Shown in pieces: positions 47,482 to 56,551 of a DNA stretch of 64,000 nt. Under the pieces are notes generated by a model that searched no databases, was not told the origin of the DNA, and saw only the letters and a list, made by a program, of their open reading frames with translations. Position 1 is the first letter of the stretch; every line of letters starts with the position of its first letter. Source of the DNA: Ilumatobacter nonamiensis YM16-303 (GTDB lineage Bacteria; Actinomycetota; Acidimicrobiia; Acidimicrobiales; Ilumatobacteraceae); NCBI RefSeq assembly GCF_000350145.1, contig NZ_BAOL01000003.1:1-64000 (forward strand), in the 5' to 3' direction. The position numbers and the translations under genes were made by a program.

Positions 47482-47650
47482 CCGAGTGAGCTTCGCCCAC
47501 GTCGAGCGGCCAATTTCCCACCCTCTGCATTACGGATTCACTACGGGTGAGAAAAAGCTAGTGGTCGCCCACCACTTTCTGTAGTATTGCCCGCGTTCTG
47601 CAGTCGCGGCCAGTTCGGTTCGGGACGAGAGGTTGATCGGAGAACTCAAC

Positions 47651-48337
47651 ATGTTGAAGAAATCGCTCGTCCGAGCCACGGTTGCCGCCGCAGCTGCGAC
47701 GATCGCGCTCTCGATGAGTGCATCACTGGCCAGCGCGGGCGGTGACTACCCGCCGAACACCGATCCCCCGGAGGAACGCACGCTCGATGTCAGCGCGTTC
47801 GCTCCCGTCTGTCAGAACGACGTCCCGTACATCCAGTACGAGATCCTCCCGGTCGGGTTCTCGTCCCTCGGTCCGGCGACCTTGACGATCTTCGACATCA
47901 ACGGTGACTTCGTCGAGGAGTTCGTCGTTCAATCACTCAGCGGACAGTTTCTCTACCCTGGTGCCACCGTCGACAGCGAGGGCCACGGAACGGACTGGCC
48001 CGGATGGTTCTTCGACGGCGACGAGTGGGTTCCCGACACGTCCGACGCGATTCTTCGCGACGGTCTCACCATCCAGGTCGAGGTCAACCCGACGGCGACC
48101 GCGGCAGTCAGCTATCCGCCCGCGACCAGCGCCTGCGCGAGCCCAGAGAATCCGGAAGAGCCCAGCGGTGCTGACGATCCCGACGAGCCCACCAGCAGCT
48201 CCTCGTCGGGAGTGCTGCCGTCCACCGGCAGCAACGCCACGATGATCACGCTGATCATCGGCGCCGGCCTCCTCGGTGCCGGCATCGTGACCTCGGTCGC
48301 CATGCGCCGTCGCCACGCTGTTCCCAACGCCGACTGA
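47651..48337 (+). CDS. LPXTG-anchored cell-surface protein
   Basis: The 228-residue protein has a signal peptide (residues 1-30, ending ASLASA), an acidic exposed domain, an Asp/Glu/Ser/Pro linker and a sorting signal LPSTG at 189-193 followed by a hydrophobic segment and RRR. Sortase should attach it to the cell wall; no sortase gene lies in this window. GATCGGAG precedes the ATG. The exposed domain is not recognised. A hairpin at 48359 ends the transcript. Confidence 0.8.
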   Translation: MLKKSLVRATVAAAAATIALSMSASLASAGGDYPPNTDPPEERTLDVSAFAPVCQNDVPYIQYEILPVGFSSLGPATLTIFDINGDFVEEFVVQSLSGQFLYPGATVDSEGHGTDWPGWFFDGDEWVPDTSDAILRDGLTIQVEVNPTATAAVSYPPATSACASPENPEEPSGADDPDEPTSSSSSGVLPSTGSNATMITLIIGAGLLGAGIVTSVAMRRRHAVPNAD

Positions 48338-49580: not shown

Positions 49581-49629
49581 GTTCTCGTCGCGCTTGCGCC
49601 CGCTACCCGGGCCAGAACGCGACCAGAAC
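49581..49629. repeat. 49-nt intergenic palindrome, copy 1
   Basis: Left arm GTTCTCGTCGCG and right arm CGCGACCAGAAC (one mismatch) enclose a GC-rich middle with its own CCCG/CGGG pairing. It lies between convergent genes (serine hydrolase and PHP protein). Confidence 0.8.
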
Positions 49630-49671
49630 CCAGTCCAGCTGCGGTGCCCGCTCCCGTCCGCCCGCACCTTC

Positions 49672-49720
49672 GTTCTCGTCGCGTTTGCGCCCGCTACCCG
49701 GGCCGATACGCGACGAGAAC
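49672..49720. repeat. 49-nt intergenic palindrome, copy 2
   Basis: Left arm GTTCTCGTCGCG, right arm CGCGACGAGAAC; the central 15 nt are identical to those of copy 1, 43 nt away. It ends 16 nt before the stop of the PHP gene. Confidence 0.85.
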
Positions 49721-49735
49721 GGCTTCGGCTGCGCG

Positions 49736-50755
49736 TCACGCGGCGGCGCGGGTCCATTCGAGCAGGTCGTCGACCGGCTTCGTGTTCAAGATTCGGTCGA
49801 TCGGAACATTGCAGTCCGCCGCACGGTCACAACCGAGCGCCTGCCATTCGAGCTGACCCGTCGCGTGGGCATCGGTGTCGATCGTGAACCAACACCCGTA
49901 CTCGACCGCGAGTCGCAACAGGTCCCGTGGCGGATCCAACCGCTCGGGACGGCAATTGATCTCGACGGCCGTGTTGAACTGAGCGCACGCGGCGAACACG
50001 TAGTCGGCGTCGAAATCGCTCGGCGGACGCTTGCCGATCATCCGACCGGTGCAGTGCCCGAGGATGTCGACGTGCGGTGACGCGATCGCCTGCAACATCC
50101 GCTCGGTCATCTGCTGCTTCTCCATCCGCAGCTTGGAGTGAACGCTCGCCACGACGACGTCGAGCCGTTCCAGCATCTCGTTCGACAGATCGAGAGCGCC
50201 ATCCTCGAGGATGTCGACCTCCATCCCGGACAGGATCTGGAAGTCGTGTCCGGCATCGGCGATCGCCTCGTTCACGGCCGCGATCTGGTCGAGTTGCTCA
50301 CTCAACCGCTCCTCGTTGAGACCATGAGCGATCGTCAGACGAGCCGAGTGGTCGGTCTGCACCATGTACTCGTGCCCGATCGCCATCGCAGTCGTCGCCA
50401 TCCGCTCGATCGGCGCTCCCCCGTCGCTCCACGTCGAATGCAGGTGACAGTCGCCGCGCAGCGCGTCGAGGTACGGACGGGCCTCGTCGCTCACTTCGAC
50501 CTGCGACGACGCCTCGATGTCGATCAAGTACGCGGGTGTCCGTCCGGCGAGCGCGTCCGAGATGACCTGCGCGGTCGACGAACCGATGCCGTCGAGGTCG
50601 GTCAGCGTGTCGTTCTCGGCCCGGCGGACGAGCTCGTCCGGGTCGGTCGAACGCACGACGTCGATGGCACGTACGAACGCTTTGGTCTTGAAACCGGATG
50701 CCCGCGAGCGGTCGAGGCAGTGGATCACGCGTAGGAGCGCGGCCTCCGGTGTCAT
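49736..50755 (-). CDS. PHP-domain phosphoesterase with helix-hairpin-helix (PolX-like)
   Basis: The 339-residue protein begins with a DNA polymerase beta-type helix-hairpin-helix region (AIDVVRSTDPDEL ... DTLTDLDGIGSSTAQVISDAL) and continues with a PHP domain: GDCHLHSTWSDGG, QTDHS, GMEVDIL, SVHS, GHC and DTDAHA supply the metal ligands. It corresponds to the end pieces of bacterial PolX without the central polymerase palm. A DNA-end or nucleotide phosphatase role is likely. Palindromic repeats flank both ends. Confidence 0.83.
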   Translation of the reverse strand: MTPEAALLRVIHCLDRSRASGFKTKAFVRAIDVVRSTDPDELVRRAENDTLTDLDGIGSSTAQVISDALAGRTPAYLIDIEASSQVEVSDEARPYLDALRGDCHLHSTWSDGGAPIERMATTAMAIGHEYMVQTDHSARLTIAHGLNEERLSEQLDQIAAVNEAIADAGHDFQILSGMEVDILEDGALDLSNEMLERLDVVVASVHSKLRMEKQQMTERMLQAIASPHVDILGHCTGRMIGKRPPSDFDADYVFAACAQFNTAVEINCRPERLDPPRDLLRLAVEYGCWFTIDTDAHATGQLEWQALGCDRAADCNVPIDRILNTKPVDDLLEWTRAAA

Positions 50756-50786
50756 ACCTGCGATCGTAGCGAGGCTCCGGTCCTCC

Positions 50787-50835
50787 GTTCTCGTCGCGAA
50801 TCGACCCGCCCGCCGATCCGATGCGCGACGAGAAC
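50787..50835. repeat. 49-nt intergenic palindrome, copy 3
   Basis: Left arm GTTCTCGTCGCG and right arm CGCGACGAGAAC. It lies between the divergent PHP and lipoprotein genes. Its right arm contains an ATG (50821) in frame with the lipoprotein, which is why the coding start is set downstream at 50851. Confidence 0.85.
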
Positions 50836-50850
50836 AGTACGTTGGCCGCG

Positions 50851-51855
50851 ATGCTGCCGACCGCGTCGCTCCACGGACGCACCACGATCGTCGGCCTGAT
50901 CGCGGTCGCCCTTCTCGGCACGGCGTGCGGTGGCGGCGACTCGTCCGAGCCGGAGGTTCTCGCCGAGTTCGGCCAGGCGCAACCGGGCGACACGGTCGGC
51001 CTGATCGCCGTGGACGCCGCCGACGGCACGCGCACCGTCGAGTGGGCTTCGCGCCGAGATGGCACCATCCACCGACTCGACATCGACGATTCCGGCTCCG
51101 AGATCGAGACCGTCGCGACGGTCGACGTGGGCATCGACGGCGAGCAGCGCGGTCTGCTCGGCCAGGTGCTCATCGACGGGCGCCGCTACGCATCGTGGAC
51201 CACCCCGGACCTCGAACTGATCGTCGGGGAGATCGGCCCTTCGGCGGATCCACGCATCGTGTGGAGCGCGGGCGAGTCCGGCAGCGGAGCGATCGGCGGA
51301 GTGCTCCAGCGTGACGACGCGAGCTCCATCCTCATCGGGCTCGGGCGCAACACCGGGTGGGACACCGAGACCGGGATCGGCGGTGCGATCCTCCGACTCG
51401 ATCCCGATGCGATGCCCGACCAGGCCGAAGGAGTCGTCAGCACCGGGTACACCAACCCGTGGGCGTTTCGGGCGACGGACGACGGGTCGGCGATCTGGGT
51501 TGCGGACAACGCCGCCGGCCCCGATCCCGACGACGAGTCGCGTGACGACGTGGAGAGGATCGGGCGAGCTGACATCGAGCCGGATCGGAACGAGATGGAC
51601 GAGATCGACGAACCTGCACGCGCGCCGTCGGCGATGATCGAACTTCCGGACGGGCGACTCGGCATCTGTGGATTCCTCGACAACGAATTGCGCGCGTACG
51701 ACACCATCGACACCGATCGCGGGCGCGACACGGGTCTCGAACCGGCCGAGATCGTGATGCCCTGCAACACCGGCGCCGCCGTTTTCGACGACGGAACGAT
51801 CGTGACCGCCGCGCAAACCGACGTCGGCGAGTCGCTCCTCATCCTCCATCCCTGA
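50851..51855 (+). CDS. Putative lipoprotein with beta-propeller-like domain (sugar-dehydrogenase-like)
   Basis: The 334-residue protein has a signal segment with a possible lipobox (ALLGTAC, Cys near residue 27, imperfect at -3), then a domain with VDVGIDGEQRGLLG and GYTNPWAFRATDDGSAIWVADN, reminiscent of PQQ-type soluble glucose/aldose dehydrogenases (GSDH). The set of PQQ and Ca ligands cannot be confirmed. The start is at 50851 rather than inside palindrome copy 3. Extracytoplasmic location likely. Confidence 0.65.
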   Translation: MLPTASLHGRTTIVGLIAVALLGTACGGGDSSEPEVLAEFGQAQPGDTVGLIAVDAADGTRTVEWASRRDGTIHRLDIDDSGSEIETVATVDVGIDGEQRGLLGQVLIDGRRYASWTTPDLELIVGEIGPSADPRIVWSAGESGSGAIGGVLQRDDASSILIGLGRNTGWDTETGIGGAILRLDPDAMPDQAEGVVSTGYTNPWAFRATDDGSAIWVADNAAGPDPDDESRDDVERIGRADIEPDRNEMDEIDEPARAPSAMIELPDGRLGICGFLDNELRAYDTIDTDRGRDTGLEPAEIVMPCNTGAAVFDDGTIVTAAQTDVGESLLILHP

Positions 51856-51890
51856 CCGGTCACGCCGCGTCCTCGCGCTCCCGCCCCTTC

Positions 51891-51939
51891 GATCTCGTCG
51901 CGCATCGACCCGCATCGCGCGCAGGAACGCGACGAGAAC
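51891..51939. repeat. 49-nt intergenic palindrome, copy 4
   Basis: Left arm GATCTCGTCGCG (one change) and right arm CGCGACGAGAAC. It starts 36 nt after the lipoprotein stop; centre rich in CG. Confidence 0.8.
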
Positions 51940-51992
51940 CGAGAACGGCACACACTTCCGCACTCCTGCGTTCCGCTCGTCCCCGGCCAAGG

Positions 51993-52042
51993 GTTCTCGT
52001 CACGCATCGACCCCGCGTCGCGGGCGGGAACGCGACGAGAAC
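51993..52042. repeat. Intergenic palindrome, copy 5 (50 nt)
   Basis: Left arm GTTCTCGTCACG (one change) and right arm CGCGACGAGAAC, with CCCGCGTCGCGGG at the centre. 56 nt upstream of the next start. Confidence 0.8.
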
Positions 52043-52098
52043 CAAGCCGGTCGAACGCTGTTTCCGGTTTCGCGGCCGCGACGACCCCGTGTCAGCGC

Positions 52099-52626
52099 AT
52101 GAAGCAACTCGGACGCCGATCGATCGCGCCGCACCACCAGCGCAAGCCCAGACGCTCGCGTCAACTCGCACTCGGGAGTTGCGCGGTCGTGCTGGTCACC
52201 GCCCTCGCGATGCCCGACGAGCCGGTCACGATCGGACCGGATTGGTGCTGGCAGCACTACGCCCTCGCACCAGCGAGCGCGCTCGTGACCGACCACGGTC
52301 CGCCCTCCGCCGACGCTGCCGACGAATGGCTCACGTGGCTCGCAGCGACCGTCGACGCGCCAGCCGCTCGACGCCACGCGCACGCGGCGCAGCTGGAGTT
52401 GGTCGAGGAGCTGCGATCGGCCGGAGCCTGGACGGCCACCGAGGCACGCCGCTATCGGGAAGCAGCAGCGAGCGATCCGACGCCGGCAACCGTGTGCGAG
52501 ACGTTCGGTGCTCGGATCATTCCCGAGCCCGATGGATCCCTCCCGCCTCGGTGGGCCGACCGCTTCACCGATGCGCAGAACGCCGCGTTCTCGCAGCTTG
52601 CCGGCTCCGAGGGCGAGGCGAGGTGA
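52099..52626 (+). CDS. Secreted or membrane-anchored hypothetical protein, coupled to the adhesin gene
   Basis: The 175-residue protein has a basic N-terminus and a hydrophobic segment (QLALGSCAVVLVTALAM) that may be a signal or anchor, then an all-helical body with WCW near residue 50 and three Cys in all. Not recognised. Its stop shares a base with the start of the large surface protein (TGATG), so the two are translationally coupled and may be exported together, for example as an accessory factor. Confidence 0.6.
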   Translation: MKQLGRRSIAPHHQRKPRRSRQLALGSCAVVLVTALAMPDEPVTIGPDWCWQHYALAPASALVTDHGPPSADAADEWLTWLAATVDAPAARRHAHAAQLELVEELRSAGAWTATEARRYREAAASDPTPATVCETFGARIIPEPDGSLPPRWADRFTDAQNAAFSQLAGSEGEAR

Positions 52627-55328
52627 TGGCAACGCAGCGGCATCCTCGGGGACGGGTCGCACGGATCGCTGGTGCCATCGGCCTGCTGATCACAGTGATC
52701 GCCCTTCAGTCGGCGCGGTCGGACGAGCCGGTCGACGCCTCCGCTCCGAACCCGGGAGCGTGCGCCGGCAATCCGTCGTTCTGTGGCATCACGCTGCGGA
52801 TCGACTCCGACGCAGGCACCATCCCGTCGGTCGCCGCCGGTGCGCACTACGGACCGGCGTGGGGGATTCCGACGACGAAGAACAACTCCACCGGAGTGGG
52901 CTGGTGCGTCGACGACACCCACACAGGATTTCCCGTCGGACCGATCTCGGAACGAGCGCTGCCGACCTCCTGGACTGCCGACGAGATGCGACGAGCGGCA
53001 ACCATCATCACGCTCTACGGGGGCGACAAGGTCGTTCCGTACCAGCCGCTGCGCATCGATCGGGCCGGCGAACTGGCAGGCATCGCCACAGCGGGAATCT
53101 CCGCAACGCGACACCGTCAGATCGCCGTCTGGTTCGCGTTGCGCTCGCTGTTGCCTGACGGTGCGCGCACTCCACGGATCGACCTCGAATCGGCAGTGAC
53201 GTTCAGCGACCCCGGCGGTCGCCGGCGATCAGCGATCGGTGATTCGGCAGTACAACTCGCTCGGCGCCTGGTCGCTGTCGCCGGGGACATGACGGCCTCG
53301 GGCCGACCGACCGTCACGGTCGAGTCGACGGACGGACAACCGCCGGCGACGATCGGCGCCGCGGAAGAAGTGACCGTCCACGTTCAGGACAGGGCGGGGA
53401 ACCCGCTTCCGAACTTTCCTGTGTGGCCGTCGTCATCGACCAACGCGAACGTCGAGTCGGCGAGCAATCGAGCCGTCCGCCGATCGGTCGCCTTCCTCAA
53501 CGCTCAGGACGCCGGCTGGCCCGCACTCGGCGGGAGCCGTCGCCTCGAGGGTGCGAGCATGACCGACGCGTCGGGCAACGCGACATTCACGATCGAGGTC
53601 ACCGAACCAGGCACCTGGTCGGTCGGGTTCGAGACGTCGGCCGCGCCATCCCGCCTGCACCTGTACGGCGACGGCATCAATGCGCAGAACAACGTCTCGA
53701 CCCTCACCGCCGACATCCGGAGCGCGTCGGGCTCACTGTCCGGGGAGGTGGTCGAACGATTCGTCCGAGCGGTCAAGACCACGACCGACTCGACCTTCGG
53801 CGTGGACGGCGCCGTGTTCTCCCTCATCGATGCGAACGGAACCGAGGTGACCCGCAGGACCACCGACGACCAAGGAGTCGTCGACTTCCCGCCGATCGCC
53901 GCCCACCACCCGACGCCGCTCACGATCCGCGAGATCACCGCGCCCGTCGGCCTGGCGCTGCGTCCCGACGCCGTCGAGGTGATCGCGGACGGCGGACTCT
54001 CCACCGACCCGGACGCGCCGACCGTCGTCGAGATCGAGAACCGTCCGGTCGAGCACGACGTGACCATCCAGAAGAAGGTCGTCGGATCCCCGGGCTTCGG
54101 TCCGCAGCTCGCCGGGTTCACGTTCACCGTCACCCGCGACAGCGACGGGACGAACTTCGGGACGCTCACCACCGACGACACCGGACGAGCCTCATCTCTC
54201 GCGGTGCCCGCCGGTGACTATTCGATCCGGGAGGTCGACCGACCGGAGCGATGGCCCGGCGACGAACCGTTCCCCGAACCGATTCGTGTCGCCGTACCAG
54301 TCGACACGACCGAACCGCTCGTCGTGAGCTTCGAGAACACACTTCCACCGCCGACGATCAGAACGACGGCAACCGACCGGGCCGACGGTGACAAGTACCT
54401 GAGCGCTGCCGGCGGCGTGATCGTCGATGCCGTCGAGGTGTGTGGCGTGGTCGAGGGAACGACGTACCGGGTCGAGGGTGAGCTGATGTTCGTCGATTCC
54501 GACTCCGGGACGGTCGAACCGACCGACATCCACGCGACCGCGGAGTTCGTCGCGGCTCCTGGCGACGACGGCTGCCAGGCGTTCGAGCTCGATTTCAACG
54601 TTCCCGTCGACTCCGAGTGGCTCGACCGATCGGGGCACTTCGTCGTCGCCGAGGACCTGTTCGTCGGGGACGATCGTGTCGCCACGCACCACGACATGGA
54701 ATCGATCGAGCAGAGCGTCTTCGTCCCCACGGTCCGATCGCTGGCAGTCGATGGCGCGGACGGTGACGGATGGATCGACCTCGGCGGGGGCACCGTCGTC
54801 GAGACCCTGTGGCTGTCCGACCTCGACGTGTCCCGACCCGATGTCGAGCTCCGCGCCGACTCTGTTCTGATGACGCTGGACGCGGCCGGCGAACCGACCG
54901 CGACGAGCGCTTCGGCGTCTTCCACGTTCGCGGTCGAGGACGTCGGAGGCGGGACGCAGCCGTCGGTCGAGATCCCGTACACGTCGGCGGACCTGTCCGA
55001 CGAGGGCGGCACCGCCGTCGTGTTCACGACGATCACCGACGCGGACACCGGCCTCGTCATCGCAGAACACCACGACCCGCAGGACACCGACCAGCAGGTG
55101 CGCTGGCGCCCCGCACCCACGGAACTACCGCCCGCGGAACCCCCGACGACCGAACCTCCACACGTGTCGGCCCCGCCGTCGATCCCGCCCGACGACCTCC
55201 CCCGGACCGGCGGGGGCTCCGCTGTCCCGATCCAGCGCTGGGGAAGCGGCCTCGCGTTGCTGGGATCGTTGCTGTTCTTCGCATCAGGCACCCGCCGCCG
55301 CGACGATCCCCACCGACCCGCTCCCTGA
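52626..55328 (+). CDS. LPXTG surface adhesin with thioester (TQXA) domain and SpaA/VaFE-type repeats
   Basis: The 900-residue protein has a signal anchor (about 11-32), then a thioester-type head: Cys94 in GWCVDD and Gln165 in HRQIAVWF match the Cys and Gln of TQXA domains that form an internal thioester for covalent host or surface binding. Ig-like and prealbumin/SpaA-like domains follow (about 370-470 and 475-575), then two VaFE-like repeats (TDRADGDKYL at about 580; a degenerate one at about 690), a Pro/Thr stalk and the sorting signal LPRTG at 858-862 with a hydrophobic tail and RRR. A sortase substrate at the cell wall. No sortase gene is in the window. The ATG overlaps the preceding stop. 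Confidence 0.83.
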   Translation: MATQRHPRGRVARIAGAIGLLITVIALQSARSDEPVDASAPNPGACAGNPSFCGITLRIDSDAGTIPSVAAGAHYGPAWGIPTTKNNSTGVGWCVDDTHTGFPVGPISERALPTSWTADEMRRAATIITLYGGDKVVPYQPLRIDRAGELAGIATAGISATRHRQIAVWFALRSLLPDGARTPRIDLESAVTFSDPGGRRRSAIGDSAVQLARRLVAVAGDMTASGRPTVTVESTDGQPPATIGAAEEVTVHVQDRAGNPLPNFPVWPSSSTNANVESASNRAVRRSVAFLNAQDAGWPALGGSRRLEGASMTDASGNATFTIEVTEPGTWSVGFETSAAPSRLHLYGDGINAQNNVSTLTADIRSASGSLSGEVVERFVRAVKTTTDSTFGVDGAVFSLIDANGTEVTRRTTDDQGVVDFPPIAAHHPTPLTIREITAPVGLALRPDAVEVIADGGLSTDPDAPTVVEIENRPVEHDVTIQKKVVGSPGFGPQLAGFTFTVTRDSDGTNFGTLTTDDTGRASSLAVPAGDYSIREVDRPERWPGDEPFPEPIRVAVPVDTTEPLVVSFENTLPPPTIRTTATDRADGDKYLSAAGGVIVDAVEVCGVVEGTTYRVEGELMFVDSDSGTVEPTDIHATAEFVAAPGDDGCQAFELDFNVPVDSEWLDRSGHFVVAEDLFVGDDRVATHHDMESIEQSVFVPTVRSLAVDGADGDGWIDLGGGTVVETLWLSDLDVSRPDVELRADSVLMTLDAAGEPTATSASASSTFAVEDVGGGTQPSVEIPYTSADLSDEGGTAVVFTTITDADTGLVIAEHHDPQDTDQQVRWRPAPTELPPAEPPTTEPPHVSAPPSIPPDDLPRTGGGSAVPIQRWGSGLALLGSLLFFASGTRRRDDPHRPAP

Positions 55329-55372
55329 CCCACTTCGTCGCCCCGCCTCGACTTCGTTCTCGTCGCGCCTCG

Positions 55373-55421
55373 GTTCTGGTCGCGCTCTCGCCCGGGTTCC
55401 GGGCCGATGCGCGACGGGAAC
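55373..55421. repeat. 49-nt intergenic palindrome, copy 6
   Basis: Left arm GTTCTGGTCGCG and right arm CGCGACGGGAAC, each with one change from the consensus and mutually not complementary at those positions. An extra left arm (GTTCTCGTCGCG) lies at 55356-55367, suggesting a partial second copy inserted or lost. Confidence 0.75.
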
Positions 55422-55475
55422 GAAGTTCGCAATGCCGTTTCCTGTTCCGGTGAGTCACGACCCCGTGTGTGGGGC

Positions 55476-56411
55476 ATGAAGCTCGACACACTCGACCGCA
55501 TCGCCCGACGACAACACGGGGTCGTGGCCCGTCACCAGACCGAACTCTCGTCATCCTCATGGCAGCGGGCGACGACGAACGGGACATTCGTTCCGATCCA
55601 CCGCAACGTTGCACGACTGGTCGGAACGGCGGACACCTCGCGCCAGCGGATCGCGGCGGCGGTGCTCGCCGCAGGCGACGGGGCGCTCGCCTCCCACCGC
55701 TCGGCGGCCCTGCTGCACGGAATCCCCACGGTCGATCCTCCGCCCGTCGACGTGATCGTTCCTCGGACCCGAATGGGTGACCGGACGACCTACATCCGCG
55801 GGCTCGATGGGGTTGTCGTCCACCGACCCTCCGACCTGATGCGTCTCAAGCCGCACCGCCAGGACAACATTTCGTGCACCTCGATCCTCCGGACCCTGCT
55901 CGATCTCGGTGCCGTCGCGGCCGACGACGTCCATGGAGCGGTTGGCCATGCACTCACCAACGACCTCGCTTCCATCGCTGCGATCGAGACCGTGCTGCAG
56001 CAACACGCTCGCCGCGGACGCGCCGGAGTCACTGCGCTCCGATCGGCACTCGACGACTGGGCGATCGACGCGAAGCCGGCCGATTCCGTGTTGGAACCAG
56101 CGATGCGACGGCTCGTGTCGGCATACGGACTTCCGCCCATCGAGTTCCATCCCTTCGTCGGCGGTCGAGAGGTCGACTTCCGCGTGGTCGGCACACCGAT
56201 CGTCATCGAGTGCGACGGGTGGCGCTACCACGGTCGAGCACGTGACCAGTTCGAGCGCGATCGCGACAACGACGCCGAGTTCGCCGCCCACGGCTGGATC
56301 GTGCTCCGATTCACCTATCGCAAGATCACGACCCGTCCGAGCGACGTCGCCGCGCACATCCGCCGCGCGGTCGAACGATGGGTCGACATCCCCGCCCCCG
56401 ATGCCGCCTGA
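55476..56411 (+). CDS. AbiEi-like regulator fused to DUF559 (Vsr-like) endonuclease domain
   Basis: The 311-residue protein has an N-terminal winged-helix region of the AbiEi antitoxin type (MKLDTLDRIARRQHGVVARHQ) and a middle domain (LASHRSAALLHGIPTVDPP ... IVPRTRM). A C-terminal DUF559 nuclease-like domain has VDFRVVGTPIVIECDGWRYH, then RDQFERDRDNDAEFAAHGWIVLRFTYRKI. In actinobacteria this architecture occurs as single genes without an AbiEii toxin, and none is seen here. A defence or regulatory role is possible. Confidence 0.78.
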   Translation: MKLDTLDRIARRQHGVVARHQTELSSSSWQRATTNGTFVPIHRNVARLVGTADTSRQRIAAAVLAAGDGALASHRSAALLHGIPTVDPPPVDVIVPRTRMGDRTTYIRGLDGVVVHRPSDLMRLKPHRQDNISCTSILRTLLDLGAVAADDVHGAVGHALTNDLASIAAIETVLQQHARRGRAGVTALRSALDDWAIDAKPADSVLEPAMRRLVSAYGLPPIEFHPFVGGREVDFRVVGTPIVIECDGWRYHGRARDQFERDRDNDAEFAAHGWIVLRFTYRKITTRPSDVAAHIRRAVERWVDIPAPDAA

Positions 56412-56502
56412 CCGAGCCTGGGGCCATCGTTTCGTCCGTTCTCGTCGCGCCTCGGCGCACGATCGGGGCCATTCGCGTCGCGCCGTTTCTCATCGGACCT
56501 CA

Positions 56503-56551
56503 GTTCTCGTTGCGAATCGACCCGCGACCCGGGCAGAGACGCGACGAGAAG
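56503..56551. repeat. 49-nt intergenic palindrome, copy 7
   Basis: Left arm GTTCTCGTTGCG and right arm CGCGACGAGAAG (arms with one and two changes). It lies in the 235-nt gap before ychF. The same gap has an isolated left arm (GTTCTCGTCGCG at 56438-56449) and an isolated right arm (CGCGACGAGAAC at 56571-56582), so two decayed copies may be present. Confidence 0.78.

What the first reader, a model, noticed from the sequence alone, without database searches (positions are those of the whole stretch)
52626..55328. Thioester-domain adhesin in a non-pathogenic actinobacterial setting
Cys94 and Gln165 lie in the two motifs (WC-D-D and RQ-AVW) that form the internal thioester of TQXA domains. Surface proteins of this sort are best known from Gram-positive pathogens that attach covalently to host. 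Here it has SpaA/VaFE-like stalk domains, an LPRTG signal and sits beside a coupled unknown secreted protein, so the organism may bind to surfaces, algae or other microbes by a covalent mechanism.
Basis: partly seen in the sequence, partly recalled or inferred. Interest (0 to 1): 0.75.

Follow-up and report, generated by a model that had tools for sequence, protein, structure and literature searches.

The report
Covalent-grip adhesin in marine-type actinobacterium

Summary
The gene at 52626-55328 (900 aa) is real: signal peptide, head, two SpaA/CnaB domains, two T-Q ester domains, LPRTG anchor. That is the architecture of a TIE (thioester-isopeptide-ester) adhesin. Gln165 (RQIAVW) belongs to the central-helix motif, reported as dispensable, and is Met in one of two relatives. 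The likely partner of Cys94 is Gln354, after a Big_1-like beta-sandwich as in class II thioester domains; Cys94 and Gln354 are the only head Cys and Gln kept in both relatives. Weak points: no Pfam or NCBIfam thioester-domain hit, no profile link to other thioester domains above decoys, two useless AlphaFold models; thioester formation is inferred. The head type is rare (3 of 221 Ilumatobacteraceae genomes). With its upstream small ORF it forms a 3.4-kb insertion absent from all 5 same-genus genomes where both flanks could be read. Four sortases lie elsewhere in the genome. The 'coupled' small ORF is not conserved. Thioester-domain proteins are already known in non-pathogens, so the setting is only mildly surprising. 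In passing: a species-specific 47-nt palindrome brackets the insertion.

The parts
52626..55328 (+). TIE-type adhesin gene, 900 aa
   Evidence: translation; domains; codon-position GC 0.68/0.55/0.83
52626..52724 (+). N-terminal signal peptide (about residues 1-33)
   Evidence: read by eye: basic start, hydrophobic stretch; no predictor run
52755..53744 (+). head, residues 44-373, proposed class II-like thioester domain
   Evidence: alignment with two relatives, 41% and 35% identity; helix order in a low-confidence model
52905..52907 (+). Cys94 codon, proposed thioester Cys (GWCVDD)
   Evidence: only head Cys kept in both relatives
53115..53132 (+). RQIAVW (residues 164-169): counterpart of the TQxxPhiW helix motif, not the bond Gln
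   Evidence: Q165 is M in one relative; lies in a predicted helix (low confidence); motif role from PMC4450167/PMC6194298
53316..53597 (+). Big_1-like beta-sandwich (residues 231-324), candidate class II insert
   Evidence: PF02369 E 3.5e-9, 37.1 bits over cut-off 34.9 on the head fragment; PF05688 E 0.00099 below cut-off
53685..53687 (+). Gln354 codon (GINAQNN), proposed thioester Gln
   Evidence: only head Gln kept in both relatives, 1 of 7
53763..54047 (+). SpaA/CnaB domain 1; candidate isopeptide K384-N472 with E436
   Evidence: PF17802; residues assigned by eye on the CnaB pattern, positions
54051..54344 (+). SpaA/CnaB domain 2; candidate isopeptide K483 or K484-N571 with E536
   Evidence: PF17802 494-543; PDB 6FWV weak match; residues by eye
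54351..54725 (+). T-Q ester domain 1: T580, D599, E676, H688, Q696
   Evidence: PF18202 E 2.9e-22 for the whole protein; A6 profile aligns H688 and Q696 with Cpe0147 H572 and Q580
54729..55115 (+). T-Q ester domain 2, degenerate: Ser705 in place of Thr, Thr801 in place of the acid Glu, H815 and Q823 kept
   Evidence: second PF18202 match E 9.3e-6; alignment
55197..55211 (+). LPRTG sorting signal (858-862), followed by a hydrophobic span and an RRR tail
52099..52626 (+). upstream small ORF, 175 aa, probably secreted (by eye), two Cys after the signal; stop/start overlap of one base
   Evidence: coding-like GC by position; no Pfam family, no convincing relative
51994..52041 (.). palindrome copy on the left of the insertion
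55374..55420 (.). palindrome copy on the right of the insertion

Best explanation
A sortase-anchored TIE adhesin. The N-terminal head is a divergent class II-like thioester domain, in which Cys94 and Gln354 (not Gln165) form an internal thioester after folding, with loss of ammonia. The thioester lies at the tip of a stalk stiffened by two isopeptide-type domains and one or two T-Q ester domains, and LPRTG lets one of the cell's sortases fix it to the wall. On docking with a suitable surface, a lysine-like amine attacks the thioester, Cys94 is freed and an amide bond to Gln354 fixes the cell. Shown here: architecture, conservation of Cys94 and Gln354, presence of sortases, absence of the locus in same-genus genomes. 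Inferred: bond formation, slipknot topology, reaction with a target, identity of the target (another microbe, a particle or a marine host are all open).
For: Full TIE order of domains. Of 3 Cys and 7 Gln in the head only Cys94 and Gln354 are kept in both relatives. Cys94 is the one Cys without an obvious partner (the others are 46/53 and 606/650). A Big_1 domain lies between the helical part and Gln354, as the beta-sandwich does in class II domains (PMC6194298). Five other T-Q proteins of the same family have heads with an invariant Cys and a late invariant Gln but no helix Gln in any of the five. A profile of Pfam-TED proteins from the same class matches class II structure 6FWY (E 7.6e-9) with the late Gln aligned. 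Four sortases.
Against: No TED hit in Pfam at E up to 10 or NCBIfam at E up to 1. Profile comparisons with the other thioester-type heads are not significant; HMMs of those heads score the three heads of this type no better than decoys; a column-shuffle test gave at best z 2.3, and over the Ig strand, not the Gln. A profile of these heads matched no PDB chain at E up to 10. Both AlphaFold runs failed (mean pLDDT 39.6 and 34.9) and the one structure search was meaningless. Only two relatives are known, one of them cut by its contig end.
Confidence: 0.65

Rival explanations
1. One reading: a thioester between Cys94 and Gln165.
For: Both motifs are present in the right order.
Against: Gln165 is Met in the closest relative; published work assigns the bond to a later Gln, and the helix Gln is dispensable (PMC4450167, PMC6194298).
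Confidence: 0.05
2. A thioester-type fold that has lost or never had the bond; the head binds its target non-covalently.
For: Pfam-TED proteins of the same class include heads without the Cys (by eye L046 has Met, L049 has Gly at that place); the helix Trp is not kept in the two relatives (His and Asn).
Against: Cys94 and Gln354 are both kept at 35-41% identity.
Confidence: 0.15
3. The head is an unrelated adhesive fold on a TIE-like stalk, and the motif resemblance is coincidence.
For: No detectable sequence link to known thioester domains.
Against: Motif pair found in 1 of 20000 shuffles; conserved Cys and late Gln; typical place before CnaB and T-Q domains.
Confidence: 0.15

Closest known systems
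Class II TIE proteins (BaTIE 6FWV, SaTIE, EfmTIE86 6FWY)
   Same: N-terminal thioester head, isopeptide stalk, ester domains in SaTIE, sortase anchor; beta-sandwich before the bond Gln (PMC6194298)
   Different: no detectable sequence similarity of the head; Cys-Gln spacing 260 here against 195, 171 and 204 there (from residue numbers in PMC6194298); environmental genus
TIEpLS20, B. subtilis conjugation adhesin (PMC8092201)
   Same: class II-type thioester domain with CnaB stalk in a non-pathogen, acting between bacteria
   Different: plasmid-borne in a conjugation operon, no sorting signal; no conjugation gene among the neighbours named here
T-Q ester domains (Cpe0147; PF18202, VaFE repeat)
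   Same: domain 1 keeps Thr, Asp, Glu, His and Gln
   Different: Ser693 stands where Cpe0147 has Asp577; domain 2 has Ser for Thr and lacks the Glu
Second head type in Ilumatobacteraceae (L039, L040, L042, L043, L044)
   Same: conserved Cys and late Gln before SpaA and T-Q domains, LPxTG
   Different: no significant sequence similarity to the head here
'Cys-Gln thioester bond-forming surface protein' of Streptomyces (WP_326683026.1)
   Same: annotated thioester-type surface protein in a non-pathogenic actinobacterial genus
   Different: found with a Pfam-TED-type query; the head of this finding gave no plasmid match

Membership tests
TIE protein | secretion signal, N-terminal head, isopeptide and/or ester domains, LPXTG anchor | tested here: met
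   signal peptide by eye only; that the head is a thioester domain is judged in the rows below
Thioester domain (TED, PF08341) | match to the curated family profile | tested here: not met
   no hit; thioester domains outside the Pfam model have been reported (PMC9210967 passages)
Thioester domain | Cys in [YFL]C-hydrophobic-hydrophilic motif | tested here: inconclusive
   WCVD here, FCLG and YCVM in the relatives: Cys invariant, motif only loosely met
Thioester domain | late Gln in a weak hydrophobic-Gln-hydrophilic-hydrophobic-hydrophobic motif | tested here: inconclusive
   AQNNV here, SQDNI and GQVTW in relatives: Gln invariant, motif weak
Class II TED | beta-sandwich inserted between third helix and bond Gln (slipknot) | tested here: inconclusive
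   Big_1 hit in the right place; topology not shown, models failed
Class II TED | internal Cys-Gln thioester (17 Da loss) | not testable with these tools
   needs mass spectrometry
T-Q ester domain (PF18202) | profile match and Thr/Asp/Glu/His/Gln set | tested here: met
   domain 1; domain 2 keeps His and Gln, with Ser for Thr and no Glu
CnaB/SpaA isopeptide domain | profile match and Lys-Asn with Glu | tested here: inconclusive
   PF17802 above cut-off, two stretches; residues assigned by eye
Sortase substrate | LPxTG, hydrophobic span, basic tail, and a sortase in the genome | tested here: met
   one class E over its cut-off, two class E-like below it, one class F-like just below; which one acts is unknown

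The most novel reading that the evidence does not exclude
The head is a separate thioester lineage, invisible to current profiles, that travels between Ilumatobacteraceae as a small cassette; and the overlapping upstream gene makes a secreted partner that either reacts with the thioester or caps it until release, so that the two form a covalent two-part surface device aimed at other microbes.
Probability: 0.08. Interest if true: 0.7.

Novelty: new member of a known kind. Interest (0 to 1): 0.38.

Why it matters
It extends covalent-grip adhesins to an aquatic actinobacterial group in which a host is not known, and gives a testable bond pair (Cys94-Gln354) in a head that family profiles miss. 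If true, profile-based counts of such adhesins outside pathogens are too low.

Tried and rejected
AlphaFold on the head with the three available sequences, once for the window and once for the G140 head: mean pLDDT 39.6 and 34.9, not used as evidence beyond the helix order.

Profile-profile comparison, HMMs against decoys and a column-shuffle aligner failed to connect the head with other thioester heads. PDB profile search with these heads: nothing.

Weak matches dropped after inspection or for quality: G114, G191 and G019 (inspected), G222, G122 (97-aa open frame, one stop, not inspected further). Upstream-ORF matches (six besides its own, E 3.5e-5 to 0.01, four of the six with stops inside) were not taken as relatives; they were not inspected one by one.

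No head relatives in viral contigs, plasmids or phages. The L041 (G121) protein end resembles the stalk of the G140 protein by eye, but its head lies off the contig.

The A3 alignment held one wrong frame (L011:8480-8900) and was discarded; A6 replaces it. L046, a PF08341 hit without the Cys, was left out of the A5 set (5 of the 6 hits used).

A paper search for TQXA domain, thioester and Streptomyces listed only papers that do not hold the TQXA term.

Full report
What is there. The ORF 52626-55328 encodes 900 aa. Pfam finds a T-Q ester family match (PF18202, E 2.9e-22) and SpaA (PF17802, E 9.3e-15), two stretches each; NCBIfam finds VaFE repeats (E 2.6e-20). On the head fragment alone Big_1 (PF02369) passes its cut-off. 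LPRTG at 858-862 is followed by a hydrophobic span and an RRR tail. Codon-position GC is coding-like.

The bond pair. In the papers read here (PMC4450167, passages; PMC6194298, introduction and first part of results) the thioester joins the Cys of a [YFL]C motif to a Gln in a weak motif near the end of the domain; the TQxx-hydrophobic-W motif is a separate helix motif whose Gln and Trp are not needed for bond formation. RQIAVW matches the helix motif. In the alignment with the two relatives (A2) Gln165 is Met in one and Gln in the other, and the Trp is His and Asn. Of the 7 Gln and 3 Cys in the head only Gln354 and Cys94 are kept in both. Gln354 lies after the Big_1-like stretch, just before the first SpaA domain, the place expected for a class II domain. 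The spacing Cys94-Gln354 (260) is longer than in the three solved class II domains (195, 171, 204, from residue numbers in PMC6194298).

How firm the head is. Not firm by homology. There is no Pfam or NCBIfam thioester match. Profile comparisons with two sets of thioester-type heads from the same class failed, HMMs of these sets rank the three heads among decoys, and a column-shuffle alignment gave z 2.3 at best. AlphaFold with three sequences gave useless models. Solved class II domains share only 18-23% identity (PMC6194298), and divergent thioester domains outside the Pfam model have been reported before (PMC9210967, passages), so this silence does not exclude membership. The case rests on motif order (1 of 20000 shuffles), conservation and architecture.

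Stalk. T-Q domain 1 keeps Thr580, Asp599, Glu676, His688 and Gln696; the A6 profile aligns His and Gln with Cpe0147 (residue roles from PMC12679949, passages). Ser693 stands where Cpe0147 has Asp577; that paper reports 79-86% of wild-type cross-linking in Asp577 mutants. Domain 2 has Ser705 for Thr and Thr801 for Glu. Asp599, Glu676, Ser705 and Thr801 were assigned by reading the alignment. SpaA isopeptide residues were assigned by eye.

Sortases. Four PF04203 matches in the genome: by NCBIfam one class E over its cut-off (164.3 against 160), two class E-like below it (156.9 and 102.5), one class F-like just below (161.6 against 166).

Distribution. Full-length matches to the head profile occur in 3 of 221 genomes of the family, a fourth weak match being dropped; in no genome but its own among 395 of the class by single-sequence search (one weak match dropped) and among 296 of the phylum by profile; the named-genome scan gave the same two relatives, a MAG labelled Actinomycetota bacterium C12_concoct.bin.167 and Ilumatobacteraceae bacterium DC_out45. 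None of the 9 other same-genus genomes has it (completeness 69-99%). One of these (G012) has a single contig of 4,830,181 bases, exactly the chromosome length of Ilumatobacter coccineum YM16-304 (PMC3910706, passages), so the genus is Ilumatobacter by inference. That paper counts 13 LPXTG ORFs in the type strain and suggests adhesion to sponges.

Insertion. In G012 the genes flanking the pair (51186-52007 on the minus strand, and the DUF559 gene) are 107 bases apart; in the window 3399. In all 5 same-genus genomes where both sides of the site were read (G012, G034, G064, G076, G099) the pair is missing, though G034 also lacks both immediate neighbours and G076 and G099 lack the left one. In G050 the contig ends too early. 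Of the remaining three, G088 gave only a partial match and was not fetched, and G121 and G110 gave none.

The upstream ORF. P0002 overlaps by one base and looks secreted (by eye). It has no Pfam family, no convincing relative in 221 genomes, and the small overlapping ORF upstream of the G140 gene is unrelated to it. G052 has upstream, on the other strand, an ORF read by eye as WhiB-like, and no such partner was seen. Coupling to this protein is therefore not a conserved trait; a partner role is possible but unsupported.

Known or new. Thioester-type proteins in non-pathogens are in print: the B. subtilis conjugation adhesin (PMC8092201, abstract and passages). NCBI names one in Streptomyces. 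PF08341 hits 6 of 296 genomes of the class. In the searches no listed paper was, by title, about thioester adhesins of Ilumatobacter or Acidimicrobiia; most were seen as listings only. Hence: new member of a known kind, with a divergent head.

Noticed in passing
window 49582-56550 (copies at 49582, 49673, 50788, 51892, 51994, 55374, 56439 and 56504): A 47-nt palindrome, TTCTCGTCGCG-N25-CGCGACGAGAA, has 8 copies (up to 4 arm mismatches, spacers 22-28) all inside this 7-kb stretch and none elsewhere in the window. Exact copies: 16 in the own genome, 0 in 19 relatives, 9 of them same-genus. Seven copies folded as DNA, z from -1.6 to -6.5. It looks like a species-specific REP or MITE-like element bracketing the adhesin insertion.
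   Followed up: partly
L039, L040, L042, L043, L044: A second thioester-type head family in Ilumatobacteraceae T-Q proteins: invariant Cys (ALC.EA) and late Gln (QR), no helix Gln in 5 of 5. A dGTPase-like gene lies just upstream, clear by eye in L040 and L044 and visible only in other frames in the rest.
   Followed up: partly
window 47633-48337: A second wall-anchored protein (234 aa, LPSTG), the only Gram_pos_anchor match over cut-off in the own genome; no match in the six same-genus stretches, not all of which reach that far.
   Followed up: partly
window 52207-52227 and 52713-52733: The upstream ORF and the adhesin share DEPV just after their signal peptides, within a 21-nt 81% repeat; may be chance.
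   Followed up: no
L046 and L049: Pfam-TED proteins of the same class whose Cys position holds Met or Gly by eye: apparently bond-less thioester domains.
   Followed up: no
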